This document shows, piece after piece, positions 1,993 to 14,141 of a DNA stretch of 64,000 nt. The stretch is from Ochrobactrum sp. BTU1. GTDB lineage: Bacteria > Pseudomonadota > Alphaproteobacteria > Rhizobiales > Rhizobiaceae. The position numbers and the translations under genes are program-made. The notes below the pieces were generated by a model. It was not told where the DNA came from. It saw only the letters and a program-made list of their open reading frames with translations, and searched no databases. How positions within the stretch are numbered: position 1 is the stretch's first letter; every line of letters begins with the position of its first letter. Location of the stretch: assembly GCA_018798825.1 (NCBI GenBank), contig CP076355.1, forward strand, positions 960,001-1,024,000, read 5' to 3'.

Positions 1993-2046
1993 CGCATTAC
2001 CCTATGCAAAACCGTTTCGCACTTTTCCTGAAAATGCTTTATGCAG
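1993..2046. repeat. Palindromic intergenic repeat, copy 1
   Basis: This copy shares the blocks CGCATTA, GCAAAACCG, TTCGCACTTTT, AAATGC and TTATGCAG, in the same order, with the copy at 41110-41174. It lies just beyond the MFS gene and its TTATGCAG arm supplies that gene's last alanine codon and TAA stop. Short imperfect palindromes with an AAAACCGGTTT-like core are widespread between genes in this bacterial group. Confidence 0.6.
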
Positions 2047-3271
2047 CCTCCTGTATCGCAAGCGCCGACTTTTCGCGACCCATACGATCCAGTGCGATAG
2101 AGATTGCAAACACGACAAGACCGGCAACTGCCAGAAGCGCACCGACCGTTCCGGTTGAAGTCCAGCCAAATCCCCATGCAACCGCCAAACCACCCAGCGA
2201 CGCGCCAATCGCATTGGCAAGATTGAGTGCTGAATGATTAAGCGCTGCTGCCAATGTCTGCGCATCCGCCGCAACATCCATAAGGCGTGTCTGCAATGCC
2301 GGAACGAGCGCAAAGCCACCGCCAACCAGCAATATGTTTAAAAATGCTGTGGCCGGATGCTGCATCAAAAATGGAAATGCCAGCATGACGGCCATGTCGT
2401 AGAGCAGCACCATTCCAACAGTGCCCATCACAGTGCGGTCAGTCAGCTTTGAACCGACGATGTTGCCAAGCACCATACCAAGCCCGAATGTGGCAAAGAC
2501 AAGTGGCATCCATTTCACGTCAACATGCGAAACTTCTGTCACGGTAGCAGCCACATAGGTGAAGACGGAGAACAGTCCGCCGGTGCCAATCGCGCCTATT
2601 CCTAGCGTCAGCCAGACCTGCTTGCGACGGAAGGCACCAAGCTCACGCAGCGGAGAAGCACCTTCGTCTGCAGGCTGCTTGGGCACATATATCATAACCA
2701 ATACCATCGTGAGGATAGCGATCAGGCCAACAGCTGCAAACATTGCACGCCAACCGGCCACTTGTCCGAGCCATGTCGCCAAAGGCGTTCCGCACAATGT
2801 TGCAACGGTCAGCCCCATCATCACGCGGCCAACGGCTTGCGCACGCTTTCCGGGCGCCGCCATGGAAGCAGCCACCAGTGAAGCAACACCAAAGTAAGCG
2901 CCATGCGGAAAGCCCGCAACAAAACGCATGATATAAAGACCAGTGTAGTGTTGCATGAAGGCACTGGCCAGATTGCCGAAAGCGAACAATCCCATGAAAA
3001 GAAAGAGCAATTTGCGGCGATCAAGCTTAGCACCAATCACGGCAAGCACAGGCGCACCGATCAACACGCCTAATGCATAAGAACTAATCAGATGACCCGC
3101 CGAGGGCATATCGACCTGAAGATCGCGCGCGATATCCGGCAAAAGTGCCATGATCGCAAATTCGCCTGTTCCGATACCGAAGCCGCCAATCGCGAGTGCG
3201 AGTTCCGCCAGTCGCGCAGGCGAACGTGACGAAGTTTCCGGCAACGAAGCCGAAGTCTGAGTATTTGACAT
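2039..3271 (-). CDS. MFS transporter, DHA1 family (AraJ/PbuE-like)
   Basis: A 410-residue inner-membrane protein predicted to have twelve helices, from the drug:proton antiporter DHA1 family. The N-terminus reads FGIGTGEFAIMALLPDIA and is followed by YALGVLIGAPVLAVIGAKLDRRKLL, the motif-A loop typical of AraJ/PbuE-like exporters. The ATG at 3271 is chosen because the longer frame to 3328 adds 19 residues that look non-coding. It lies about 100 bases after the Rid gene on the same strand and probably belongs to that operon. In that setting it could export a base, nucleoside or toxic intermediate, which is inference. The substrate is unknown. Confidence 0.88.
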   Translation of the reverse strand: MSNTQTSASLPETSSRSPARLAELALAIGGFGIGTGEFAIMALLPDIARDLQVDMPSAGHLISSYALGVLIGAPVLAVIGAKLDRRKLLFLFMGLFAFGNLASAFMQHYTGLYIMRFVAGFPHGAYFGVASLVAASMAAPGKRAQAVGRVMMGLTVATLCGTPLATWLGQVAGWRAMFAAVGLIAILTMVLVMIYVPKQPADEGASPLRELGAFRRKQVWLTLGIGAIGTGGLFSVFTYVAATVTEVSHVDVKWMPLVFATFGLGMVLGNIVGSKLTDRTVMGTVGMVLLYDMAVMLAFPFLMQHPATAFLNILLVGGGFALVPALQTRLMDVAADAQTLAAALNHSALNLANAIGASLGGLAVAWGFGWTSTGTVGALLAVAGLVVFAISIALDRMGREKSALAIQEAA

Positions 3272-3371
3272 GAATTTGCCTGAAGAGAATGGAGGATATC
3301 GGAAAACCCTACCACTCCTTTCCGGCAAAGGCGATACGCTTTATCTTGATCAGCGGATGGGAAATCGCTGC

Positions 3372-3761
3372 CTACTTAGCCGCCACAACCTCGATTTCGA
3401 CCTTGAATTCCTCCCGCGTAAAGCCGGAGACGATCATCAGTGTTGAAGCTGGTGCAGGCAGCGGAAACAGGCGATCGCGCACATCCATATAGGGGCGCAT
3501 ATAAGCGCGATCCGTCACATAGGCGTTGATACGAACAACATCGGAAAGTTCCATACCGCCATCGCGCAGAATGCGACCGATGTTTTCAAAGCAAAGCTCC
3601 GCCTGCGCGCCTGCCTCTTCCGGCACCGATCCATCTGGCGCAATGCCAAGCTGGCCGGAGCAGAATATCAACTCGGCGCCCGCACCCACCTTCACGCCAT
3701 GACTATAGGCGGCAAAGGGAGCAGCCATATTGGCTGGCAGCAAATGTTTCAAAACAGTCAT
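3372..3761 (-). CDS. Rid (YjgF/YER057c/UK114) family protein without the usual catalytic arginine
   Basis: A 129-residue Rid protein, the normal trimer-forming size. It has the family features FCSGQLGIAPDGSV, NIGRILRDGGMELSDVVRINAYV and a C-terminal VEIEVVAAK strand. Canonical RidA enamine/imine deaminases carry a PAR(S/T) motif whose arginine binds the substrate carboxylate. Here the segment reads LPAPASTLMIV, so alanine or proline sits at that place. The RidA at 23457-23828 in this window keeps PART. This protein therefore probably belongs to an Rid subfamily with a different substrate. It lies 9 bases after the FAD oxidoreductase, in the same operon. Confidence 0.9.
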   Translation of the reverse strand: MTVLKHLLPANMAAPFAAYSHGVKVGAGAELIFCSGQLGIAPDGSVPEEAGAQAELCFENIGRILRDGGMELSDVVRINAYVTDRAYMRPYMDVRDRLFPLPAPASTLMIVSGFTREEFKVEIEVVAAK

Positions 3762-3770
3762 TTTATGTCC

Positions 3771-5003
3771 TCAGGCTTTTGGTGCAGATGCCAGCAATTC
3801 TTTGAGGCGTGGAGCACCCGCTGCAACATCGTCTTCGGTGGGATGGATACCTGCGGCAAGCAGCCGCCGGGCAATCATGTGATCAGCCGGACGGTTGATG
3901 GAATCGACCGCAACCAACTTTTCGCCCGCAAAATGAAACACGGAGAATGCATTATCTTCGAAGTTGCCTGACAGAATATGACGGTCGGCATCGAACGACA
4001 GCCCAGCGGTCTGCAACTTCATGTCGCCCTGATCCGACCAAAACCACGCCACATCACGAAACGGAGTACCGCGCCCGACAATCGAGCGCGCAACATGCTT
4101 GGCCTGATCGGTTGCATTCTGCACCGATTCCAGTCGTACGCGACGACCTGCATGGAAATGGTCATAGCTCACGCAGTCGCCAATCGCATAAACATGCTCA
4201 CTCGACGCACGCATATGCTCATTCACCACGATACCATTATCGACAACAAGTCCGGCTTCGATCGCTAGCTCGACATTTGGGACAGCGCCCGTCCCCAGCA
4301 CCACCATATCAGCTGGGAAAAACGTGCCATTGGCCGCTTTTACACCTGCCACTCGGCCGCCTTCGCCTTCAATTGCCTCAACGCCAACGCCCGTCAGAAG
4401 CCTAATATCCGACGCCCGGCTGCGTGTTTCAACATGTGCCGAAATAAGTGTGGCAACCGAACGCCCCAGAACGCGAGGAGCTGCTTCGATCACAACGGTC
4501 TTTTTGCCAAGTGCTACTGCACTATGCGCCATTTCAAGACCTATAAAGCCGCCACCGATTATCACCACGTTTTCAACGCGTGGCATCATATCTGCAATGC
4601 GGCGCGCATCACCCAAACGGCGCAACGTGAAAACGCCATCGAGACCAACACCTCGCATGTCAGGAATGCGTGCGCGGGCACCGGTCGCAAAAACCAGCTC
4701 CGACCAGTTTAGCACCACGCCATTATCAAGCGTGACTGTCTTGTCAGTCAGAGACACATGCTCAACTGTGTGCCCGAATAGCATCTCAATATTATTATCG
4801 CGATAGGTGCTTTCCGGACGCAGCACAAGAATCCCGCCTTCGGGTGCCTTCAGATAAGATTTGGAAAGCGGCGGCTTATGATAGGGAATATCCTGCTCAT
4901 CATTGATAAGGACGATCTCACCCGAATAGCCTTCCTGTCTCAGACTGATTGCTGCCTGCGAACCTGCATGTCCAGCGCCAATAATAATGCATCTGTTTTC
5001 CAT
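3771..5003 (-). CDS. NAD(P)/FAD-dependent oxidoreductase (ferredoxin/rubredoxin reductase type)
   Basis: A 410-residue flavoprotein of the BphA4/rubredoxin-reductase class. It has an N-terminal FAD motif (IIIGAGHAGSQAA), the HKPPLSKSYL segment, a central NAD motif (VVIIGGGFIGLEMA), a second FAD motif (VYAIGDCV) and a C-terminal reductase domain (VRLESVQNATDQAK, WFWSDQ). Such enzymes pass electrons from NAD(P)H to a small ferredoxin that feeds an oxygenase; no ferredoxin or oxygenase gene is in the window. The ATG at 5003 has GGAG five bases upstream. A longer start at 5090 has an AGGAGG too close to be effective. It is divergent from the creatininase-like operon across the RutR-type palindrome. 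Confidence 0.9.
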   Translation of the reverse strand: MENRCIIIGAGHAGSQAAISLRQEGYSGEIVLINDEQDIPYHKPPLSKSYLKAPEGGILVLRPESTYRDNNIEMLFGHTVEHVSLTDKTVTLDNGVVLNWSELVFATGARARIPDMRGVGLDGVFTLRRLGDARRIADMMPRVENVVIIGGGFIGLEMAHSAVALGKKTVVIEAAPRVLGRSVATLISAHVETRSRASDIRLLTGVGVEAIEGEGGRVAGVKAANGTFFPADMVVLGTGAVPNVELAIEAGLVVDNGIVVNEHMRASSEHVYAIGDCVSYDHFHAGRRVRLESVQNATDQAKHVARSIVGRGTPFRDVAWFWSDQGDMKLQTAGLSFDADRHILSGNFEDNAFSVFHFAGEKLVAVDSINRPADHMIARRLLAAGIHPTEDDVAAGAPRLKELLASAPKA

Positions 5004-5118
5004 AGGATCTCCGGAATTTTCCCGCGCATCATAATCATGAGACAGGCGGTCGCGTGGCGAATTCGTCACGGATTCACACCTTAATTGCATGCCTCCTCAT
5101 TTTTTTAAACATTTAGTT

Positions 5119-5132
5119 TGACCGATCGGTCA
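5119..5132. promoter_or_regulatory. Candidate operator for the RutR-like regulator
   Basis: A perfect 14-bp palindrome, TGACCGATCGGTCA, lies in the divergent promoter region between the genes starting at 5003 (minus) and 5199 (plus). With one more T it reads TTGACC-N4-GGTCA, close to the known E. coli RutR site TTGACCA-N2-TGGTCAA. It overlaps a possible -35 (TTGACC, 5118-5123) followed by TAGTAA 16 bases later. The gene ending the plus operon encodes a RutR-like TetR protein, so autoregulation is likely. That assignment is inference. Confidence 0.65.
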
Positions 5133-5198
5133 GATTGTTTAGTAAGTTTTTTGCTTCAGCACGCAGCCTACCCCCAGCAGCCAGCCAGGAGCCTCCAC

Positions 5199-5999
5199 TT
5201 GAAACGATATTGGTCAGAATATACGAGCGAGGCATTCTCCCGCCTGGAGCGCGATAAAATCGTAGCAGTTCTGCCCGTTGGCGCGATCGAACAGCACGGA
5301 CCACATCTGCCTCTGGCAGTGGATGCAGCTATTGTGGACGGTATGGTGAAAGAAACAATCGCCCTCCTTCCCGATGAAAGCAAAGTGCTGTTCCTGCCAA
5401 CGCAAGCTATCGGCAAAAGCAACGAGCACAGCCTTTATCCCGGCACACTGACATTCTCGGCAGAAACGCTCATTCGCATGTGGTGTGAAATTGGCGCCTG
5501 CGTTGCTGCAAGCGGCGTTCGCAAAATGGCGCTGCTGAACAGCCATGGCGGCCAGATCACGGTGATGGACATTGTGGCGCGCGAATTGCGTATCAAACAC
5601 AATATGATGGTTTTCAGCGTCAACTGGTTTGGCCTCGGAATGCCTGAAGGCGTTTATAGCGAGCACGATCTCAAGCACGGCATTCATGCCGGCGACATGG
5701 AAACCTCTGTCATGCTCGAATTCCACCCGGATCTGGTGGATATGTCGAAGGCGCAGAATTTCCGCACACTAACCGAAACATTTGCTTCTGATTACAAGCA
5801 TCTTTCGCTGAGCGGTGGCGCAAAGCCAGCATGGCAGGTGCAGGACATCAACGCTCACGGCGCTGCTGGCGACGCATCGATTGCCACCGCTAAAAAAGGC
5901 CGCAAGACCATCGACTTTGCTGCCGAGCGCCTGGTCGAGGTGCTGACCGAGATCGAACGAGCGCCACTCTCGTGGCTCGATAATCAACCTGCCTGGTAA
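5199..5999 (+). CDS. Creatininase-family amidohydrolase
   Basis: A 266-residue metal-dependent amidohydrolase of the creatininase family. The signature GAIEQHGPHLPLAVD gives the E, H and D metal ligands; NSHGGQ and HAGDMETSVMLEFHP follow. Creatininase relatives open cyclic amides (creatinine) or remove formyl groups from amines. The start chosen is TTG at 5199, because AGGAG lies 7 bases upstream and the length then matches the family; a longer frame from 5118 would run through the operator palindrome. It is the first gene of a plus-strand operon with an ABC importer, a deaminase and an oxidase, so hydrolysis of an N-heterocycle is plausible. Confidence 0.88.
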   Translation: MKRYWSEYTSEAFSRLERDKIVAVLPVGAIEQHGPHLPLAVDAAIVDGMVKETIALLPDESKVLFLPTQAIGKSNEHSLYPGTLTFSAETLIRMWCEIGACVAASGVRKMALLNSHGGQITVMDIVARELRIKHNMMVFSVNWFGLGMPEGVYSEHDLKHGIHAGDMETSVMLEFHPDLVDMSKAQNFRTLTETFASDYKHLSLSGGAKPAWQVQDINAHGAAGDASIATAKKGRKTIDFAAERLVEVLTEIERAPLSWLDNQPAW

Positions 6000-6004
6000 G
6001 GACG

Positions 6005-6814
6005 ATGAGCGTGGCCCCCAACTCGCAAACCCCATCTTCCCTGATCGATATCAACGGCGTCTATAAGCAATATGGAACAGGCGTCATTGCGGTCAGTGAT
6101 ATGTCGCTCAAGATCGAACAAGGTCAGTTCGTAAGCTTCCTCGGCCCGTCAGGTTGCGGCAAGAGTACAGCACTTCGCATGATTGCAGGCCTTGAATCCA
6201 TTTCGGCAGGCAACATTCACGTCAATGGCCATGCACCGGGCAAAGGCCCCATTGGTGCGCAGGACATCGGCTTTGTGTTTCAGGAGCCTACCTTGATGCC
6301 GTGGGCCAGCGTTTTCGACAATGTCTATTTGCCGCTCCGTCTTTCTGGCATTTCGCGCAAGGAGGCCTCGCTGCGCGTGGAAGAAGTGCTGACGCAGGTC
6401 GGCCTCTCCCGCTTCGCCAACGCCTTTCCGCGCGAACTTTCGGGCGGCATGAAAATGCGCGTTTCTATTGCCCGCGCACTGGTCACGCGTCCGCGTCTGC
6501 TGTTGATGGATGAGCCTTTTGCGGCGCTCGATGAAATGACGCGTTTCAAACTCAACAATGATGTTTTGCGGCTATGGCAGGAACACGGCCTGACCGTGGT
6601 CTTCGTCACGCACAGCGTTTATGAGTCCGTCTATCTCTCAAACCGCGTCATCGTCATGGCCGCACGCCCCGGACGCGTCGTTGCCGATATTGCTATTGAA
6701 GGCAGCTATCCGCGCGCTGAAAACTTCCGCACCACGGAAGCTTACGCAAAGGATTGCGCGCGCGTTTCCGATGCACTCACCGCAACGCTTTCGTCGCAAG
6801 ACATCGACCATTAA
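6005..6814 (+). CDS. ABC transporter ATP-binding protein (NMT1/taurine/nitrate type)
   Basis: A 269-residue ATPase with Walker A GPSGCGKST, Q-loop FQEPTLMPW, signature LSGGMKMR, Walker B LLLMDEPFAALDE and switch histidine VFVTHS. The FQEPTLMPW and LSGGM(K/R)xR forms are typical of the SsuB/TauB/ThiZ class that serves NMT1-like binding proteins. It follows the creatininase-like gene by 5 bases and precedes its permease, and should energise uptake of the island's substrate. Confidence 0.93.
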   Translation: MSVAPNSQTPSSLIDINGVYKQYGTGVIAVSDMSLKIEQGQFVSFLGPSGCGKSTALRMIAGLESISAGNIHVNGHAPGKGPIGAQDIGFVFQEPTLMPWASVFDNVYLPLRLSGISRKEASLRVEEVLTQVGLSRFANAFPRELSGGMKMRVSIARALVTRPRLLLMDEPFAALDEMTRFKLNNDVLRLWQEHGLTVVFVTHSVYESVYLSNRVIVMAARPGRVVADIAIEGSYPRAENFRTTEAYAKDCARVSDALTATLSSQDIDH

Positions 6815-6825
6815 GGACAGGGATC

Positions 6826-7659
6826 ATGCAAAACCAAACGCCTGTTCTGAATTCCGAACAACACCGCCTGGCCCGCAGAGACCGCAACTTGCGCATCATC
6901 ATGCCAACGCTTGCGATCATCATCGCACTCGGCATTTGGGAAGGTCTGGTGCGCTATTATAATGTACCGCATTATTTGATCCCAGCTCCATCGCTCATCG
7001 GCGAAACGCTAATTAAAGACGGGCCATCGCTGATGACTTCGATGTGGTTCACGGTCAAGCTCACGCTGATTTCGTTACTCTGCGCGATTATCGGCGGCGT
7101 TCTGCTTGGCATGATCTTCGCGCTGTCCCGACCGATTGAAATGGCCTTCTTTCCGTTTGCCGTCATTCTTCAGGTAACACCGGTCATTGCCATTGCACCG
7201 CTGATCCTGATCTATGTGCGCGATACGTTTTCAGCCCTGCTGATCTGCGCATGGATCGTGGCCTTCTTCCCGATCCTGTCAAACACGGTTATCGGCCTGC
7301 GTAGCGCCGATCATAATTTACGCGATCTGTTCAAGCTCTATCGTGCCTCGCCGTGGCAGCGTCTGCGCTATCTGCTTGCACCAAGCGCCCTGCCTTATTT
7401 CATGGCAGCGCTCAAGATCGCTGGTGGGCTCTCGCTGATCGGTGCTGTGGTGGCAGAATTTGTTGCTGGCAGTGCTGGCCAAAGCACTGGCCTGGCCTCG
7501 CGTATTCTGGAATCGAGCTTCCGCAATGAAATCCCGCGCATGTTTGCTGCACTGTTCCTCGTTTCGCTGCTTGGTATTGTGATTTTCCTGATCACAAGCT
7601 GGCTGTCGCGCCTTGTGCTCGGACGCTGGCATGAAAGCGAGATCCGTCGTGAACGATAA
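6826..7659 (+). CDS. ABC transporter permease (SsuC/TauC-like)
   Basis: A 277-residue inner-membrane permease of the BPD_transp_1 class. The N-terminal helix is followed by YLIPAPSLIGETLI, a hallmark of taurine/nitrate/HMP-type permeases. The EAA-like loop lies near LRDLFKLYRASPWQRLRYLLAPSALPYF. The ATG at 6826 is preceded by GGACAGGGA; a longer frame from 6754 overlaps the ATPase by 61 bases and is unlikely. It pairs with the ATPase just upstream and the binding protein at 10244. Confidence 0.92.
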   Translation: MQNQTPVLNSEQHRLARRDRNLRIIMPTLAIIIALGIWEGLVRYYNVPHYLIPAPSLIGETLIKDGPSLMTSMWFTVKLTLISLLCAIIGGVLLGMIFALSRPIEMAFFPFAVILQVTPVIAIAPLILIYVRDTFSALLICAWIVAFFPILSNTVIGLRSADHNLRDLFKLYRASPWQRLRYLLAPSALPYFMAALKIAGGLSLIGAVVAEFVAGSAGQSTGLASRILESSFRNEIPRMFAALFLVSLLGIVIFLITSWLSRLVLGRWHESEIRRER

Positions 7660-8848
7660 GATTGGAAACGCTGATTTACTCAAAGGCGTCGTGATTGCAG
7701 GTCGCAGCGGATACTATGATATCAGCACCGATAGCGGACGCATTGCTTCACTGACGCCTTCGCAAGCAAAAGGCGGCGGCTTTATCACACCGCTTCTCGC
7801 TGATGTGCATGTGCATCTCGACAAGACATTCACCATCGGTCGCATTGCCGAGCGTGGCAGCGCCAAAGTTGAGTGTCTGTTCGATGCGATTGATCTGATG
7901 AATATCGACCGTGAGAGCTGGAACGCCGACGATATTCACGCCCGCGCCACACGTGGTCTTGAAGCAGCTTATGCGCAAGGCGTTGGTGCCATGCGAACTC
8001 ATGTCGATTGGACCACACCTGATGTACCGACCGCCTGGCCGGTGCTGAACGAGCTGCGTCAGGAATGGCAAGACCGCATCGATTTTGAACTTGCAGCGCT
8101 TATCCATGGCGATATCGTGCTTGATAGCGCTGCTGCAATTGCCCAGCGCGTGGCAAAAGACGGCGGCGTTCTTGGCGCTTTCTTCTATCGCAATGCTGAT
8201 CTTGACGCCAAAATCGAACATATGTTTCGTCTTGCCGTACAGCATGGTCTCAAGCTCGACTTTCACGTCGATGAAGGGCTTGAATTGGAAGCTGATGGAT
8301 TCTCGCTGATTGTCGCTGCAACCAAGCGTCACAATATGGGACGCCGCGTTCTTTGCGGTCATGCCTGTTCGCTTTCGCTGCGTTCACCCGAGGAACTAAG
8401 CCGCATTCTTGATGCCGCTGCGGAAGCTGGAACAGCGCTTGTATCTCTGCCGACATCCAATCTCTATCTGCAAGACAGGCTAGGCGGAAAATCGCCGCGT
8501 CTTCGCGGTGTAGCACCATTGAAAGAAGCACGTCGTGCAGGCATTGACGCCATGCTTGGCTCCGACAACGTGTGCGACGCTTTCTATCCCTATGGCGATT
8601 ATGATCCGCTTTCGGTTCTTCGCCTCGCAGCCCCGGTCTGCCACCTTGAGCCGGATGAATGGCTCGACAGCATCACCACCCTGTCCGCGCGTTTCATCGG
8701 AAGTGACCGCGTACAGGCACTGAACGAAGGCGGGAATGCGAATTTTATCTGGCATGACGCCACAGATATCAACGACCTCATCAGCCGTCCGCAGGCGCGT
8801 CGCGTCATCTGGCGCGATGGCAAAAAAACAAATCGGAGAACCCCATGA
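7631..8848 (+). CDS. Amidohydrolase of the cytosine deaminase family
   Basis: About 405 residues with the cytosine-deaminase layout: ADVHVHLDKTF (metal HxH), LKLDFHVDEGLE (metal His and catalytic Glu), RRVLCGHACSLS (His), LPTSNLYLQDR, and GSDNVCDAFYPYGDYD with the metal Asp. Relatives deaminate cytosine, creatinine or isocytosine, or hydrolyse N-substituted triazines. The start is uncertain: ATG 7631 is given, but GTG 7649 with GAGA seven bases upstream is equally possible, and both overlap the permease end. The gene ends in an ATGA overlap with the oxidase. Together with the creatininase-like enzyme it suggests ring opening and deamination of an N-heterocycle. Confidence 0.88.
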   Translation: MKARSVVNDKIGNADLLKGVVIAGRSGYYDISTDSGRIASLTPSQAKGGGFITPLLADVHVHLDKTFTIGRIAERGSAKVECLFDAIDLMNIDRESWNADDIHARATRGLEAAYAQGVGAMRTHVDWTTPDVPTAWPVLNELRQEWQDRIDFELAALIHGDIVLDSAAAIAQRVAKDGGVLGAFFYRNADLDAKIEHMFRLAVQHGLKLDFHVDEGLELEADGFSLIVAATKRHNMGRRVLCGHACSLSLRSPEELSRILDAAAEAGTALVSLPTSNLYLQDRLGGKSPRLRGVAPLKEARRAGIDAMLGSDNVCDAFYPYGDYDPLSVLRLAAPVCHLEPDEWLDSITTLSARFIGSDRVQALNEGGNANFIWHDATDINDLISRPQARRVIWRDGKKTNRRTP

Positions 8849-10224
8849 ATTCTGCCGCACCACAGCGCGTCTATGACTGGGCCGCCTTTCGCGCCGATAT
8901 CGAAGGTATCCGCATTTATGACGACCCCAAGCAGGTCGAACTGCGGTCCCGCGATTATTTCTGGTATAGCCCGATCCTGACTGAAGACATCGGCCATTAT
9001 TTGGGCGATCTCGTCGTCATCCCGAAAGATCAGGATGAAGTGCGCCGCGTTGCAGCAGCAGCAGCAAAGCTTCGCATTCCGATAACTGTTCGCGGTGGCG
9101 GAACCGGCAATTATGGTCAGTGCGTTCCGCTCGAAGGCGGTGTCATTCTCGATATGACAAAGATCGACCGCATCATCGCAATCGAACCGGGTAAAGTTCG
9201 CGTTGAAGGCGGCGCACGTATTTCGCGCCTCGACGATGCTGTGCGCGAAAAGGGCCAGGAACTGTTGATGTATCCGTCGACCCGCCGCATCGCCACCATT
9301 GGCGGCTTTTTCTCAGGCGGTTCGGGCGGCATCGGTTCTCTGCGCCACGGCATGTTGCGTGACGATGGCAATGTCTATTCGGTCAAGGTTCTAACCGTTG
9401 AGCCAGAGCCTAAAATCATTGAGCTGACAGGCCGCGACATCCATAAGGTGCAGCATGCCTATGGCACCAATGGCATTATTCTAGAGCTCGAAATCGGCCT
9501 CACCAAAGCAACCGAATGGGTGCATACTGCGGCGCTTTTCGATAGTTATGAAGCAACGCTGAAATTCTGCCTCAAGGCGCTGGAAGAAAACCTAGATTGC
9601 TATCTGCTGACGACGGTAGACCGCCGCTTTGCTCGCTTCTACACTAAATTTGGTGATCTTTTCCCATCCGACAAAGATGCGGTTTTTGCGATGATTGCAC
9701 CGGAAGAACTGGCTCGTTTCAAGCAATTGGCCACTGAGTTCGGCGGCAATGTATCCTTCTCAATGACCCTTGATGAGCTGCACAAAGCCGGTCTTCAGCC
9801 TGCATACGAATGCGGCTGGAACCACACCACCCTTCAGGCGCTGAAGGCAGAGCCGGGCTGGACCTATTTGCAGGTTGCCTATCCGCGTCCGTTCGACATC
9901 GATGTGGTTACACGCCAGATCGAACGCTACGGTGAAACGCAATATATGCATCATGAAATGGCGCGTCTGGAAGGCGAAGTTCAAATTTTTGCCCTACCAC
10001 TTGTGCGCTTTGAAGGCCGTGAGGAGATGTATCGCCTGATCGAGGAGCTGGAGCAGGTTGACGGCTGCGATATTTACGATCCTCACGCCTATACGATCGA
10101 AGACGGCGGCATGAAGGAAATCGACAGCACGCAGATCGAATTCAAGAAGCAGGCCGATCCATATGGCCTGCTAAATCCAGGAAAAACCCGCGGCTGGACA
10201 GCCGACATGGCACTTTCAAACTGA
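8845..10224 (+). CDS. FAD-linked oxidase (GlcD/VAO type)
   Basis: A 459-residue flavoprotein of the vanillyl-alcohol-oxidase/GlcD superfamily. The N-terminal FAD-binding domain includes LVVIPKDQDEVRRVAAAA, ITVRGGGTGNYGQCVP, GGVILDMTKIDRI and IGGFFSGGSGGIGSLRHG. The C-terminus has the usual DPYGLLNPGK segment. These enzymes oxidise 2-hydroxy acids, alcohols or amines. The start overlaps the amidohydrolase stop by four bases (ATGA), showing translational coupling. Its exact substrate cannot be read from the sequence. It probably oxidises an intermediate of the same pathway. Confidence 0.9.
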   Translation: MNSAAPQRVYDWAAFRADIEGIRIYDDPKQVELRSRDYFWYSPILTEDIGHYLGDLVVIPKDQDEVRRVAAAAAKLRIPITVRGGGTGNYGQCVPLEGGVILDMTKIDRIIAIEPGKVRVEGGARISRLDDAVREKGQELLMYPSTRRIATIGGFFSGGSGGIGSLRHGMLRDDGNVYSVKVLTVEPEPKIIELTGRDIHKVQHAYGTNGIILELEIGLTKATEWVHTAALFDSYEATLKFCLKALEENLDCYLLTTVDRRFARFYTKFGDLFPSDKDAVFAMIAPEELARFKQLATEFGGNVSFSMTLDELHKAGLQPAYECGWNHTTLQALKAEPGWTYLQVAYPRPFDIDVVTRQIERYGETQYMHHEMARLEGEVQIFALPLVRFEGREEMYRLIEELEQVDGCDIYDPHAYTIEDGGMKEIDSTQIEFKKQADPYGLLNPGKTRGWTADMALSN

Positions 10225-10243
10225 TAATAGGGGAACGAAACGA

Positions 10244-11254
10244 ATGAAAAAAGCACTCTTTGCGGCAGTCGCCGCTTTCTCGATCGGCCTATCCGCGCAG
10301 ATGGCCTATGCACTCGATAAGGTGACGCTCGGCACCAACTGGCTGGCGCAGGCTGGTCACGGTGGCTTTTATCAGGCTGTTGCAGATGGCACTTATGAGA
10401 AATATGGCCTCGATGTGAAGATCGAAATGGGCGGACCTCAGGTCAACAATCGCCCAATGCTCGCCGCTGGTCGTCTCGACTTTCTGCTGACCGGCAATCT
10501 GCTTTTGTCGTTCAACAATGTTGCCAATGACGTGCCAACAACGGTTGTTGCGGCTTTCTATCAGAAAGACCCGCAGGCGCTAATGGCGCATGAAGGCGAA
10601 TACAAGGACTTCAAAGACCTCGTCAATGCACAGACAATCCTGATTTCCAAGGATGGTCAGTTCTCATTCTGGCCATGGTTGGTGAAAGATTTTGGCTTCA
10701 AGGACGAACAGCTCCGCCCTTATGGCTATAGCCTGGCGCAGTTCCTCGGCGACAAGAAGACTGTGCAACAGGCCTACGCCACAGCAGAACCGATCTATGC
10801 TGAGAAAGAAGGCGCGAAAGTCACAACCTTCCTGCTCGCAGATCAAGGTTATAGCACCTATGCAAACACCATCGAAACGCGTCAGGAACTGATCGAAAAG
10901 AACCCTGACCTTGTACAGCGTTTTGTGACCGCTTCCATCGAAGGCTGGACCAATTTCCTCTATGGCGACAACAGCAAGGCTTATGAGCTGATCCTCAAAG
11001 ACAATGCTGATATGAGCAAGGAAACGCTCGATGCAGAGCTTGCACGTCTTAAGGACCTCAAGCTCATCGACAGTGGCGACACGCTGGAAAAGGGTATCGG
11101 CGCCATCGATATGAACCGCGTTAAGGAATTCTACGAACTGGCTCGTAAGTCCGGTATCTTAAGCGGTGATGAGCTGGAGATGGCCAAGGTTGCTACCGAC
11201 GCCTTCGTAAACAAAGGCGCAGGTCTCGACATCAAGAAGCAACTGGGCCAATAA
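10244..11254 (+). CDS. ABC transporter substrate-binding protein (NMT1/THI5-like)
   Basis: A 336-residue periplasmic protein with a Sec signal peptide (MKKALFAAVAAFSIGLSAQ, cleavage near AYA-LDK). The mature start VTLGTNWLAQAGHGGFYQAV and the KYGLDVKIEMGG and GRLDFLLTG segments are typical of the NMT1/SsuA family. Members bind taurine, aliphatic sulfonates, nitrate, hydroxymethylpyrimidine or flavins. Regulation by a RutR-like protein favours a pyrimidine-like ligand, which is inference. It follows the oxidase by 19 bases and completes the importer. Confidence 0.92.
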   Translation: MKKALFAAVAAFSIGLSAQMAYALDKVTLGTNWLAQAGHGGFYQAVADGTYEKYGLDVKIEMGGPQVNNRPMLAAGRLDFLLTGNLLLSFNNVANDVPTTVVAAFYQKDPQALMAHEGEYKDFKDLVNAQTILISKDGQFSFWPWLVKDFGFKDEQLRPYGYSLAQFLGDKKTVQQAYATAEPIYAEKEGAKVTTFLLADQGYSTYANTIETRQELIEKNPDLVQRFVTASIEGWTNFLYGDNSKAYELILKDNADMSKETLDAELARLKDLKLIDSGDTLEKGIGAIDMNRVKEFYELARKSGILSGDELEMAKVATDAFVNKGAGLDIKKQLGQ

Positions 11255-11285
11255 GCCTCTGATTTGAAGATAATGGCTGGCGGAT

Positions 11286-11939
11286 ATGACAACCGACAAC
11301 GAGAATGACGATAATGAGCTGACCAGCCGAGACAAAGTTCTTGGCCGCAGGCGTCGCATTCAGGATGCTATTCGCACAGCCGCAATTGATGAGTTCGCAG
11401 AAAAAGGACTGGTGGGCGCGTCCACGCAGGGTATCGCTCAGCGCGCGGGTCTCACCAAGCCTCAACTCCACTACTATATCTCCAGCAAGGAAGAACTCTA
11501 CGAGGATATCATCATCTTCATCCTCGACGAGTGGGAAGATATTTTCCTTGGGGCTAGTACCGAAGAAGAACCCGCGAAAGTTATCCGGCAATATATTCGG
11601 GCCAAGCTCCAATATAGCCAGAAAAACCCGAAGGCTTCCCGTCTTTTCACTACCGAAATTGCCAATGGCGCGCCCTATCTAAGCCGCCATTGGAAGAAGC
11701 ACGTCGCTGCCACCCATAATGCGGTGAGGCTCATTCAATCATGGGTAGACGATGGTCGGATTAAACCAGTCGATCCTCTGCTTTTTCAAATGCATATATG
11801 GGCAGTCACCCAGCACTATGCAGATTTTGAAGCGCAGGTGCGTAGCATGATGTCGCTCAGTAAAGACGAGCCACTAGATCTTGATCGCTTAGAAAAAGAG
11901 GTTTCAACGCTTTTTCTGCGCGGCTGCGGCCTAGCTTGA
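11286..11939 (+). CDS. TetR-family regulator, RutR-like
   Basis: A 217-residue regulator. The N-terminal TetR helix-turn-helix is at about residues 25-70 (RIQDAIRTAAIDEFAEKGL, TQGIAQRAGLTKPQLHYYI). The C-terminal ligand domain closely resembles RutR: SRLFTTEIANGAPYL, a WVDDGRIKPVDP segment and WAVTQHYADFEAQV. E. coli RutR senses uracil/thymine and binds TTGACCA-N2-TGGTCAA; a near-identical palindrome lies at 5119-5132. It is the last gene of the plus-strand operon, 31 bases after the binding protein, so it likely controls both arms of the island and itself. Confidence 0.88.
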   Translation: MTTDNENDDNELTSRDKVLGRRRRIQDAIRTAAIDEFAEKGLVGASTQGIAQRAGLTKPQLHYYISSKEELYEDIIIFILDEWEDIFLGASTEEEPAKVIRQYIRAKLQYSQKNPKASRLFTTEIANGAPYLSRHWKKHVAATHNAVRLIQSWVDDGRIKPVDPLLFQMHIWAVTQHYADFEAQVRSMMSLSKDEPLDLDRLEKEVSTLFLRGCGLA

Positions 11940-12079: not shown

Positions 12080-12163
12080 TTGATTTGGACAAGCATCGAC
12101 CATCCCTTGGCGGGGGCGATGCATTAAGGAGCAGGTTCTTGGGGAGGAGCCTGCTCCTTTTCC
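12080..12163 (+). ncRNA. Candidate small RNA, or structured 3' UTR, after the RutR-like gene
   Basis: Two adjacent hairpins are followed by a T-run. The first pairs GCATCG (12093-12098) with CGATGC (12117-12122) and holds CCATCCC and GGCGGGGG. The second is the terminator at 12128-12163. C-rich and G-rich loops of this kind are common in alphaproteobacterial trans-acting sRNAs. No promoter is obvious and the 5' end is a guess. It may simply be the operon's 3' UTR. Confidence 0.3.
12128..12163 (+). terminator. Rho-independent terminator after the RutR-like operon
   Basis: GGAGCAGG (12128-12135) pairs with CCTGCTCC (12150-12157). The stem extends inward with wobble pairs and is followed by TTTTCC. 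It closes the plus-strand transcript. Confidence 0.75.
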
Positions 12164-12314: not shown

Positions 12315-13181
12315 TTATTCAGCAAGCCATTCTTTAATTCGGTCCGGATTGTCTGCAATGTACTTGTCAACGGCCTTCTCGTAGGAAGTCTCCTGCGCAT
12401 CAAACATTGCAGCTTCCAACTCGCCAATCGGAATGCTCATCTTCTCAAGGAGAGACGCAACCTTAGGGTTTTCTTCCTTGAAGCCCTTACGAGCCAAAGC
12501 ATCGATGTGTTCAGCGCCACCGAGGGCACCTTGCGGATCCGCAATATAGCGCAGCTTATATTTGCCGAACATCCAGTGCGGGCTCCAAGACGTGGCGACG
12601 AACCAGCCATCCGAACGCGTTGCACGATCAACAGTAGTCAACATTGCAGCTTCACTCGAGATATTCAGCTTGTAATCAAGTCCGTATTTTTTAATTGCTT
12701 CGTCCGACAGGCGGGTCAGACCTGCACCCGGATCGATACCTTGGATTTCCCCCTTCAGTTTCTCACGAACTTCAGGCTTTTTCAGATCTTCAATCGAGCT
12801 GATCTCGCTTTCCGGGATATAGTCCGGAACAATCCAGCCAAGCTTTGCACCTTCATAAAGCGGACCAAGATTTTCAACCTTGTCTTCCACACGCTTGTAA
12901 TAATCAGCATGGGTTTCAGGCAACCAGGCCATCATCATTGCATCAATATCGCCACGGCTTACGCCTTGATAAAGCGGTGCTACGTCGGTCTGAACCAGCT
13001 CAACCTTCTGACCAAGTTTGTCTTCAATCAGCTTGGCCGCGAGCTTGGTGACGAATTCTGCGTCAGACCAGGGAGCCCAGCCGATCTTCACTGTTTTTCC
13101 GTCCTGCGCGAATGCAGCTCCGGCAGACAAGCTTCCAGCTATTACTGCTGCAAGACCGAACTTTGTTAGCTTTCCCAACAT
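12315..13181 (-). CDS. proX: Glycine betaine/choline-type ABC transporter substrate-binding protein
   Basis: A 288-residue periplasmic protein with a signal peptide (MLGKLTKFGLAAVIAGSLS, cleavage near AFA-QDG). The OpuAC fold is clear: VKIGWAPWSDAEF, GDIDAMMMAWLPETHADYY and SDGWFVATSWSPHWMF, whose tryptophans form the aromatic box that binds a quaternary ammonium head group. It is the third gene of a proV-proW-proX arrangement. The ligand could be glycine betaine, proline betaine or choline; the aromatic box alone does not decide. Confidence 0.92.
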   Translation of the reverse strand: MLGKLTKFGLAAVIAGSLSAGAAFAQDGKTVKIGWAPWSDAEFVTKLAAKLIEDKLGQKVELVQTDVAPLYQGVSRGDIDAMMMAWLPETHADYYKRVEDKVENLGPLYEGAKLGWIVPDYIPESEISSIEDLKKPEVREKLKGEIQGIDPGAGLTRLSDEAIKKYGLDYKLNISSEAAMLTTVDRATRSDGWFVATSWSPHWMFGKYKLRYIADPQGALGGAEHIDALARKGFKEENPKVASLLEKMSIPIGELEAAMFDAQETSYEKAVDKYIADNPDRIKEWLAE

Positions 13182-13223
13182 GGCTTCTCCTTTGTGATTA
13201 ACTGTCGTTCCCGTTTTATTTGT

Positions 13224-14141
13224 TTATGCTTCCTGCTTGCGGAACGCAGATGATGATGGCTCATCTGCCGTCTTTTTCATAAAGGACAGCCTTTTGAAGA
13301 AGCCCAACAAGCCCCCGGAATTTCTTTTGCCGAAGCTCTGTGTGATACGATCGAGGATAACGGCCAGAATGACCACTGCGAGTCCGCCTTCAAATCCCTT
13401 ACCGACATCAAGACGTTGAATACCGGTCAAAACCGTATTGCCGAGGCCGCCTGCGCCAATCATCGATGCGATAACCACCATCGAAAGCGACAGCATGATG
13501 GTCTGGTTCATTCCAGCCATGATGGATGGCATGGCGTTGGGAAGTTGTACCTTAAACAGCAGCTGGCGCGAGGTGCAGCCAAAAGCGAGACCGGCTTCAA
13601 CAAACTCAGCATGAACCTGACGGATACCGAGATTGGTGAGACGCACCACAGGCGGCATGGCGAAGATGACGGTTGCAATCGTGCCCGGCACAGCGCCGAG
13701 GCCAAAAAACATTGCTGCTGGAATGAGATAAACGAAGGCTGGCATCGTCTGCATCAAGTCAAGCACCGGACGAACCACCGATGCCACAGCATCGCTACGC
13801 GCCATTGCGATACCAAGGGGAATACCAATAACCACGGCAATAATCGTAGAGGCGAGCACAAGTGACAGGCTCTCCATCGTGCCGCTCCACAATCCCATAT
13901 GGATGATGAGAGCGAGAGCAAATACTGTGAAAATTGCGAATTTCCATCCCACACGCCACAGCGCAAGCAGCGTGAGAATAGCAATGCCACCGAAAGGCGG
14001 AATTGCAAGAAGAGCATTTTGAATGCCATCGGTCACAAAACCGATTGTGGCTGCGATCATATCGAGCGCAGGCGTAAAATGATCAAGAATGTAGTTCACC
14101 ACTACATCTGCCCATCCGCCGATACTAAAATTCAGATCCAT
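13224..14141 (-). CDS. proW: Glycine betaine/proline-type ABC transporter permease
   Basis: A 305-residue inner-membrane permease of the ProW class. After an N-terminal amphipathic stretch and periplasmic part it has the BPD_transp_1 core: SDAVASVVRPVLDLMQTMP, FVYLIPAAMFFGLGAVPG, and the coupling loop EFVEAGLAFGCTSRQLLFKVQLP. The region around MSLSMVVIASMIGAGGLG is highly typical. It lies between its ATPase and binding-protein partners on the minus strand. Confidence 0.93.
   Translation of the reverse strand: MDLNFSIGGWADVVVNYILDHFTPALDMIAATIGFVTDGIQNALLAIPPFGGIAILTLLALWRVGWKFAIFTVFALALIIHMGLWSGTMESLSLVLASTIIAVVIGIPLGIAMARSDAVASVVRPVLDLMQTMPAFVYLIPAAMFFGLGAVPGTIATVIFAMPPVVRLTNLGIRQVHAEFVEAGLAFGCTSRQLLFKVQLPNAMPSIMAGMNQTIMLSLSMVVIASMIGAGGLGNTVLTGIQRLDVGKGFEGGLAVVILAVILDRITQSFGKRNSGGLLGFFKRLSFMKKTADEPSSSAFRKQEA

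What the first reader, a model, noticed from the sequence alone, without database searches (positions are those of the whole stretch)
2039..11939. Two-way island with a RutR-type operator, likely for an N-heterocycle
A perfect TGACCGATCGGTCA palindrome at 5119-5132 matches the RutR half-sites and separates two divergent gene sets. The plus set ends in a RutR-like regulator and includes a creatininase-like hydrolase, a cytosine-deaminase-like enzyme, an FAD oxidase and an NMT1-type importer. The minus set has a ferredoxin-reductase-like flavoprotein, an atypical Rid protein and an MFS pump. This differs from the known rut operon and from the reductive pyrimidine pathway. The substrate might be a modified pyrimidine, creatinine or a related ring; cytosine deaminase relatives can also act on creatinine.
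Basis: partly seen in the sequence, partly recalled or inferred. Interest (0 to 1): 0.75.

Follow-up and report, generated by a model that had tools for sequence, protein, structure and literature searches.

The report
Pterin-breakdown gene island, RutR-type switch
This stretch of DNA most likely holds a self-regulated set of genes that imports and breaks down pterins (the ring system of folate and related cofactors), and its relatives elsewhere hint that the pterin's sugar-like tail is eaten as well.

Summary
In detail: a perfect TGACCGATCGGTCA palindrome (5119-5132) separates two divergent gene sets of the types described. A perfect palindrome is not rare; its conservation is the evidence (32 of 35 exact TGACC-N4-GGTCA sites in 2.78 Mb of fetched loci lie just upstream of the creatininase gene). 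The regulator keeps all five E. coli RutR uracil-contact residues, yet the genome has a separate RutR beside reductive pyrimidine genes. The substrate guess needs correcting. The FAD oxidase belongs with PDB 6v42, titled 'flavin oxygenase ... involved in folate catabolism'. The 'cytosine deaminase' lacks CodA's substrate glutamine and is closer to Variovorax pterin deaminase; in a Variovorax-like genus that deaminase shares the module (oxygenase in 41, deaminase in 45 of 61 genomes, oxygenase never alone). Best reading: a pterin catabolic module with exchangeable reductases under a RutR paralogue. In several lineages it adjoins tetronate (C4 sugar acid) genes, in one genus within a few bp of the deaminase gene. 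The boldest prediction is therefore catabolism of trihydroxypropyl pterins (neopterin, monapterin) to a uracil-type ring plus a C4 acid. No enzyme of this island has been assayed.

The parts
2039..3271 (-). MFS exporter (DHA-type); start ATG inferred at 3271; accessory, seen only in the Brucella/Ochrobactrum group
3372..3761 (-). Rid/YjgF-family protein; predicted enamine/imine hydrolase
   Evidence: Rid homologue in 89 of 111 loci with full flanks
3771..5003 (-). Ferredoxin reductase-like flavoprotein (HcaD/AndAa type, below cut-offs); start ATG inferred at 5003; predicted electron supply for the flavin oxygenase
   Evidence: replaced by flavodoxin_2 or PDR-type reductases in relatives
5119..5132 (.). 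Operator palindrome TGACCGATCGGTCA
   Evidence: binding not tested
5118..5145 (+). Candidate plus-strand promoter: -35 TTGACC (5118-5123) overlapped by the operator, 16-nt spacer, weak -10 TAGTAA (5140-5145)
   Evidence: read from sequence; the sigma-70 scan did not list it; the -35 half is the best conserved part across loci
5199..5999 (+). Creatininase-family amidohydrolase, TTG start
   Evidence: E31, H33, H116, E168 invariant in 76 sequences
6005..6814 (+). ABC importer ATPase
6829..7659 (+). ABC importer permease
7631..8848 (+). Amidohydrolase annotated cytosine deaminase (PRK07583-like); predicted pterin deaminase; ATG 7631 inferred
8845..10224 (+). FAD-dependent oxygenase of the PDB 6v42 family
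10244..11254 (+). NMT1/THI5-type substrate-binding protein
11286..11939 (+). RutR-like TetR-family regulator
12126..12159 (+). Candidate terminator (15-pair stem) after the regulator gene
   Evidence: the number of such sites in the region equals the shuffled mean (12 against 12.1)

Best explanation
The island is an inducible pterin (pteridine) catabolic module. The NMT1-type ABC importer brings in a pterin. The amidohydrolase removes the 2-amino group, giving a lumazine (a pteridine with a uracil-type face). The FAD enzyme, supplied with electrons by the adjoining reductase, oxygenates and opens the ring. The creatininase-like metalloamidase hydrolyses a ring-amide product, and Rid hydrolyses the imine/enamine released. 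The RutR paralogue represses both operons from the one operator, which overlaps the plus-strand -35 box; a pathway compound with a uracil-like edge lifts it off. Shown by sequence: the gene set, conserved linkage, family assignments, operator conservation, retained uracil-contact residues. Inferred: every reaction, the order of steps, the ligand and repression.
Against: No assay exists for any protein here. The 6v42 function rests on the depositors' title; no paper on it was found. The window FAD enzyme is only about 40% identical to 6v42 and lies outside the 6v42 branch, so its substrate may differ. The Variovorax enzyme assayed in print was not itself fetched; the link runs through genus, length, the Rid neighbour and a UniRef name. 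No reductase was found within 8 kb in 22 of 85 non-Brucella loci. 4 of 61 genomes of the Variovorax-like genus have the deaminase without the oxygenase. The retained uracil pocket fits plain uracil or thymine just as well.
Confidence: 0.72

Rival explanations
1. The module breaks down a free or modified pyrimidine (for example the thiamin pyrimidine HMP, 5-methylcytosine or uracil derivatives), not a pteridine; the 6v42 likeness reflects fold and chemistry only.
For: RutR uracil-contact residues retained; binding-protein fold closest to thiamin and formyl-aminopyrimidine binders; deaminase in the cytosine deaminase superfamily.
Against: The same genome has another RutR with a dihydropyrimidinase-like gene and its own NMT1-type importer; CodA Gln156 is lost; deaminase and oxygenase both point to pterin or folate enzymes.
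Confidence: 0.17
2. The true substrate is folate, pteroate or pterin-6-carboxylate, as the 6v42 title says, and the tetronate neighbours in relatives are incidental. This is the pterin class with a different side chain.
For: 6v42 title; the Variovorax deaminase acts on folic and pteroic acid, and the authors infer further breakdown because cultures consumed more folate than the products found (PMC9513972).
Against: The window-type oxygenase branch is separate from the 6v42 branch. Tetronate genes adjoin the module in several lineages of the window-type branch and were not seen as a set in the 6v42-type loci examined. In the published work cell extracts decomposed only minimal deaminopteroate.
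Confidence: 0.3
3. Creatinine or hydantoin catabolism through a creatininase and a creatinine-deaminating amidohydrolase.
Against: Creatininase model 87.8 of 235 bits; no creatinine route that I know explains the FAD oxygenase; the conserved partners fit pterins.
Confidence: 0.03

Closest known systems
Flavin oxygenase of folate catabolism, PDB 6v42/6v43, and its rhizobial relatives (e.g. R. johnstonii pRL12, L081)
   Different: Window oxygenase about 40% identical and on another branch; the L081 cluster has LysR and an NAD(P)H oxidoreductase (flavodoxin_2 type), the window has a RutR-like TetR and a ferredoxin-reductase type
Variovorax pterin deaminase (You et al. 2022, PMC9513972) and Arad3529
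   Same: Window amidohydrolase 39% identical to a Variovorax protein named pterin deaminase; that deaminase lies in the same module in a Variovorax-like genus
   Different: Only deamination of folate and pteroate was shown; the terms gene cluster, ABC transporter and creatinin- do not occur in the paper's main text. Arad3529 itself was not fetched
E. coli RutR and the rut operon
   Same: Regulator family, operator half-sites, uracil-contact residues; a Rid-family protein
   Different: RutA/B/D/E/F/G models are not among the hits listed for the island genes (lists capped at 25 for three of ten proteins); RutR model 148.7 of 368 bits, RutC 26.4 of 169.1; another RutR stands beside pyrimidine genes in this genome
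Four-carbon acid sugar pathway (LtnD, DenD, OtnK, OtnI, OtnC)
   Same: Adjoins or shares operons with the module in relatives
   Different: In the window's genome it lies on another contig beside a GntR-like gene, without a clear operator
Reductive pyrimidine pathway with NMT1-type transporter
   Same: Also beside a RutR and an NMT1-type ABC
   Different: Different enzymes; both present in this genome at separate places

Membership tests
6v42-type pterin/folate flavin oxygenase | Full-length match well above other VAO-fold families | tested here: met
6v42-type pterin/folate flavin oxygenase | Oxygenation of a pterin or folate derivative | not testable with these tools
   needs assay
Pterin deaminase | Closer to pterin deaminase than to cytosine deaminase | tested here: met
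   251-256 bits, 39% to two Variovorax proteins (one named pterin deaminase by UniRef) against 114 bits, 29% to the E. coli CodA segment
Pterin deaminase | Metal and catalytic residues of the amidohydrolase superfamily (roles recalled) | tested here: met
   H59, H61, H211, E214, H243, D311 invariant in 12 sequences (numbered from codon 7634)
Pterin deaminase | Deamination of pterins | not testable with these tools
   needs assay
Cytosine deaminase (CodA) | Substrate-recognising Gln156 (role recalled) | tested here: not met
   aligned residue is His in the window, His or other residues in relatives; equivalog score 332.6 below 403
Creatininase | Equivalog score | tested here: not met
   87.8 against 235 bits
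RutR (E. coli type) | Equivalog score | tested here: not met
   148.7 against 368 bits (TIGR03613), 124.4 against 230 (PRK15008)
RutR-like regulators | Five uracil-contact residues | tested here: met
   W77, Y97, W167, Q171, Q179 all kept
RutR-like regulators | Conserved RutR-type palindrome at the module | tested here: met
   binding itself not tested; right half drifts and some loci show no clear site
rut operon | RutA-RutG enzymes | tested here: not met
   no such model passes its cut-off among the hits listed for the ten island genes; lists capped at 25 for three of them
NMT1-type binding protein | NMT1/THI5 family above Pfam threshold | tested here: met
   77.2 bits against 20.5; closest folds thiamin and ThiY binders

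The most novel reading that the evidence does not exclude
The window-type branch is a complete bacterial route for polyhydroxyalkyl pterins (neopterin, monapterin and their hydro forms). The pterin is deaminated to a lumazine and the pyrazine ring is opened by the flavin oxygenase; Rid and the creatininase-like amidase finish the release. The C6 carbon with its trihydroxypropyl tail leaves as a C4 sugar acid, D-erythronate from neopterin or L-threonate from monapterin (directly, or after decarboxylation of a C5 2-oxo acid). That acid enters the LtnD/DenD/OtnI/OtnK/OtnC pathway, while the uracil-type remnant is both nitrogen source and inducer sensed by a RutR paralogue.
Probability: 0.37. Interest if true: 0.8.

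Novelty: new variant of a known kind. Interest (0 to 1): 0.62.

Why it matters
Pterins are made by nearly all cells (folate, neopterin, monapterin), yet as far as I know little is known of how bacteria take the ring apart beyond deamination. If right, this gives a defined, widespread gene set (oxygenase in 32 of 398 sampled genomes of the phylum; 32 of 35 in the genus), a name for many proteins now called 'cytosine deaminase', 'creatininase family' and 'FAD-binding oxidoreductase', a ready pterin biosensor (regulator plus operator), and a link between cofactor turnover and C4 sugar acid metabolism.

Tried and rejected
Palindrome as evidence by itself: rejected (6 perfect 14-mers in the window, 4.0 expected). 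A second operator in the genome: the only 1-mismatch place (L002) lies near an IS-like ORF; taken as chance. Xanthine dehydrogenase genes beside the R. johnstonii module as part of the pathway: of 123 loci only L081 itself carries a full set; weak hits of 26-41% to the large and small subunits in L070 and L170; dropped. A fixed two-fold-symmetric operator in all lineages: not so; in Rhodobacterales and the Variovorax-like genus the left half is kept and the right half drifts. In one search, which printed one best place per locus, no TTTGACC-like site came out for L032, L039, L041, L049, L050, L053, L054, L056, L058-L061, L063, L070, L071, L073 and L077 (for L004 it printed another place, but TTTGATCAATTGGTATG is there), and 7 loci had no creatininase hit. 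Tetronate link as a feature of all close relatives: L170 and L171 have oxygenases 89% identical to that of L128 but no tetronate genes in the stretches read; of 20 Variovorax-like loci, L200 and L201 lack OtnI beside the deaminase and L193 shows OtnI only; in the window-type loci most have no tetronate genes nearby. AceE-like E1 neighbours: kept as a lead only; in L197 the neighbour passes the aceE cut-off, so it may be ordinary pyruvate dehydrogenase.

In the tree a 50-residue fragment (L144) slipped in as a row and took the midpoint root; branches were read without it. The deaminase tree is FastTree, rooted on the CodA segment. The 120 listed hits of the FAD enzyme search named no function beyond FAD-binding oxidoreductase or the like. 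Literature: no paper of the held library contains 6V42 or 6V43 or joins creatininase, cytosine deaminase, FAD, TetR, catabolism and ABC transporter; homarine and folate/pterin searches gave only PMC9513972 of direct use; the others were seen as listings. PMC5343134 was read in passages, PMC10891134 in passages and legends.
Full report
Observation. The palindrome TGACCGATCGGTCA is exactly at 5119-5132 and has no second exact copy in the genome. A perfect 14-bp palindrome is not rare in itself: the window holds six, with 4.0 expected from composition. It lies between a minus-strand set (reductase, Rid, MFS) and a plus-strand set of seven genes: creatininase homologue, ABC ATPase, permease, amidohydrolase, FAD enzyme, NMT1-type binding protein, TetR regulator. 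Gene gaps in the plus set run from overlaps to 31 bp, so one transcript is likely (inferred). Small corrections: creatininase starts at TTG 5199, amidohydrolase at ATG 7631, reductase at ATG 5003 (read from sequence). The genome is of the Brucella/Ochrobactrum group: the nearest named loci include Brucella pseudogrignonensis (97% for the FAD enzyme) and B. grignonensis (96%).

The operator is conserved. In Nitratireductor the same 14-mer sits in the same divergent gap. Across fetched loci exact TGACCN4GGTCA occurs 35 times in 2,779,587 bases (some overlapping), 32 of them just upstream of the creatininase gene; many of the 32 loci are close kin. In Rhodobacterales the left half TTTGACC is kept and the right half drifts (as in TTTGACCGATTGCTATG); a number of loci show no clear site (listed under Tried and rejected). 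In 20 of 20 fetched loci of a Variovorax-like genus TTTGACC or TTGACC occurs within 330 bp upstream of the creatininase gene, in 16 of 20 as TTTGACCNNNNGGATAATTT, and one (L202) carries the exact window 14-mer. The left half doubles as a -35-like TTGACC, so a bound repressor would block the plus promoter (inferred; the sigma-70 scan did not list this promoter).

The regulator is a RutR paralogue, not the genome's only RutR. The genome has two other members (36-37% identity). One stands beside a dihydropyrimidinase-like gene, an M20-type amidase-like gene and an NMT1-type importer, with its own site TTGACTAGTTGGTCAA; the other near a nucleoside-type importer, with sites TTGACAAGATGGTCAA and CTGACAAAACGGTCAG (neighbours named by eye from their sequences). 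The five residues that hold uracil in E. coli RutR (W77, Y97, W167, Q171, Q179; PMC10891134 legend) are all kept in the window protein and, counting it, in 60 of 66 module regulators. The ligand should therefore show a uracil-like edge. A deaminated pterin (lumazine) has one (established chemistry; binding not tested).

The deaminase. The amidohydrolase keeps the metal and catalytic residues of its superfamily but not CodA Gln156, and W319 and D314 are also replaced (numbers and roles recalled). It is 39% identical, 251 bits, to a Variovorax protein that UniRef calls pterin deaminase, against 114 bits to the CodA segment. Pterin deaminase activity on folic and pteroic acid was shown for Variovorax sp. 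F1 (399 residues; an endoribonuclease gene lies downstream in V. paradoxus; PMC9513972). I fetched 20 of the 41: all 20 have deaminase, oxygenase, creatininase, binding protein, TetR and a PDR-type reductase in one stretch, and 18 have Rid.

The module as a unit. Of 123 loci with the FAD enzyme, 111 have full flanks. Within 8 kb: creatininase 102, ATPase 103, amidohydrolase 101, binding protein 97, Rid 89, TetR 70 (summed over its four groups). Close kin count many times (26 of 111 are Brucella-group), and outside the loci the regulator is usually not this TetR (TetR in 6 of 42 loci of the other two groups). The reductase is exchanged between three unrelated kinds: among the 85 non-Brucella loci FdR only 14, flavodoxin_2 only 36, PDR only 6, FdR plus flavodoxin_2 4, flavodoxin_2 plus PDR 3, none found 22. 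This fits a flavin oxygenase that needs outside electrons (inferred). The oxygenase family is in 32 of 398 genomes sampled over the phylum and 32 of 35 of the genus, one of the 32 as two pieces.

Tetronate genes. D-erythronate dehydrogenase, L-threonate dehydrogenase and 3-oxo-tetronate kinase (above NCBIfam cut-offs in L025/L026) lie on the reductase strand, downstream of FdR, in Mesorhizobium, Nitratireductor, Aminobacter, Aquamicrobium and Paenochrobactrum loci (the kinase was not found in the two Nitratireductor loci), and near the module in L030 and L070; in all, 10 of 123 loci show LtnD with DenD or OtnK within 8 kb. In the Variovorax-like genus 2-oxo-tetronate isomerase ends within 5 bp of the start of the pterin deaminase match, 16 times overlapping it by 4 bp, in 18 of 20 fetched loci; 17 of 20 also show the kinase, and in L197 the isomerase, kinase and threonate dehydrogenase pass their cut-offs. 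In the window's own genome the erythronate dehydrogenase and kinase pass theirs on another contig, with the other pathway genes and a GntR-like gene beside them by eye, and no clear operator. The simplest reading is that the substrate releases a C4 sugar acid. Neopterin (D-erythro) and monapterin (L-threo) carry exactly such a tail, C6 plus three side-chain carbons (chemistry recalled). This is the boldest claim. It was noticed after the fact among many neighbours, most loci do not show it, and 4C-acid gene clusters normally hold both dehydrogenases (recalled), so the stereochemical fit is weaker than it looks.

Proposed working. Import; deamination to a lumazine; flavin-dependent opening of the pyrazine ring; amide hydrolysis by the creatininase homologue; Rid hydrolysis of the imine; the uracil-type remnant induces and supplies nitrogen. 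Gene set, linkage and conservation are shown; every reaction, the order and the ligand are inferred.

Verdict. The kind of system is partly known (6v42, Variovorax pterin deaminase). What I add is the RutR-paralogue control with a conserved operator, the exchangeable reductases and the tetronate coupling; I found none of these in print in the searches, which cover only the open-licence library.

Noticed in passing
L095 524-7942 (genome C1:277000-292000): Another RutR beside dihydropyrimidinase-like and M20-type genes and an NMT1-type ABC importer (named by eye), with operator-like TTGACTAGTTGGTCAA at L095 7174-7189.
   Followed up: partly
L096 7176-8035 (genome C2:1247000-1262000): A third RutR-family regulator near a BMP-type nucleoside importer (by eye), with two nearby sites; it keeps four of the five uracil-contact residues (Q179 is Leu).
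   Followed up: partly
L004, L032, L034, L042, L043, L046, L063, L064, L073, L077, L079, L080: A protein of about 800 residues distantly like AceE/transketolase adjoins the module in Rhodobacterales and relatives (E1 hit within 8 kb in 15 of 43 non-Brucella loci incl. L003/L004, some of them weak), with an Lrp-type regulator beside it in some. It could decarboxylate a 2-oxo acid product.
   Followed up: partly
window 12315-14141: Genes that look like a choline-type ABC importer (binding protein and permease, by eye) on the minus strand right after the island.
   Followed up: no
L012, L075, L078: Several module genes come out in split pieces in these three assemblies; sequencing errors or decay not distinguished.
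   Followed up: no
L133 (G012): Two oxygenase copies of different branches lie within about 5 kb of each other in one locus, suggesting two pterin substrates in one organism.
   Followed up: no
   Followed up: no
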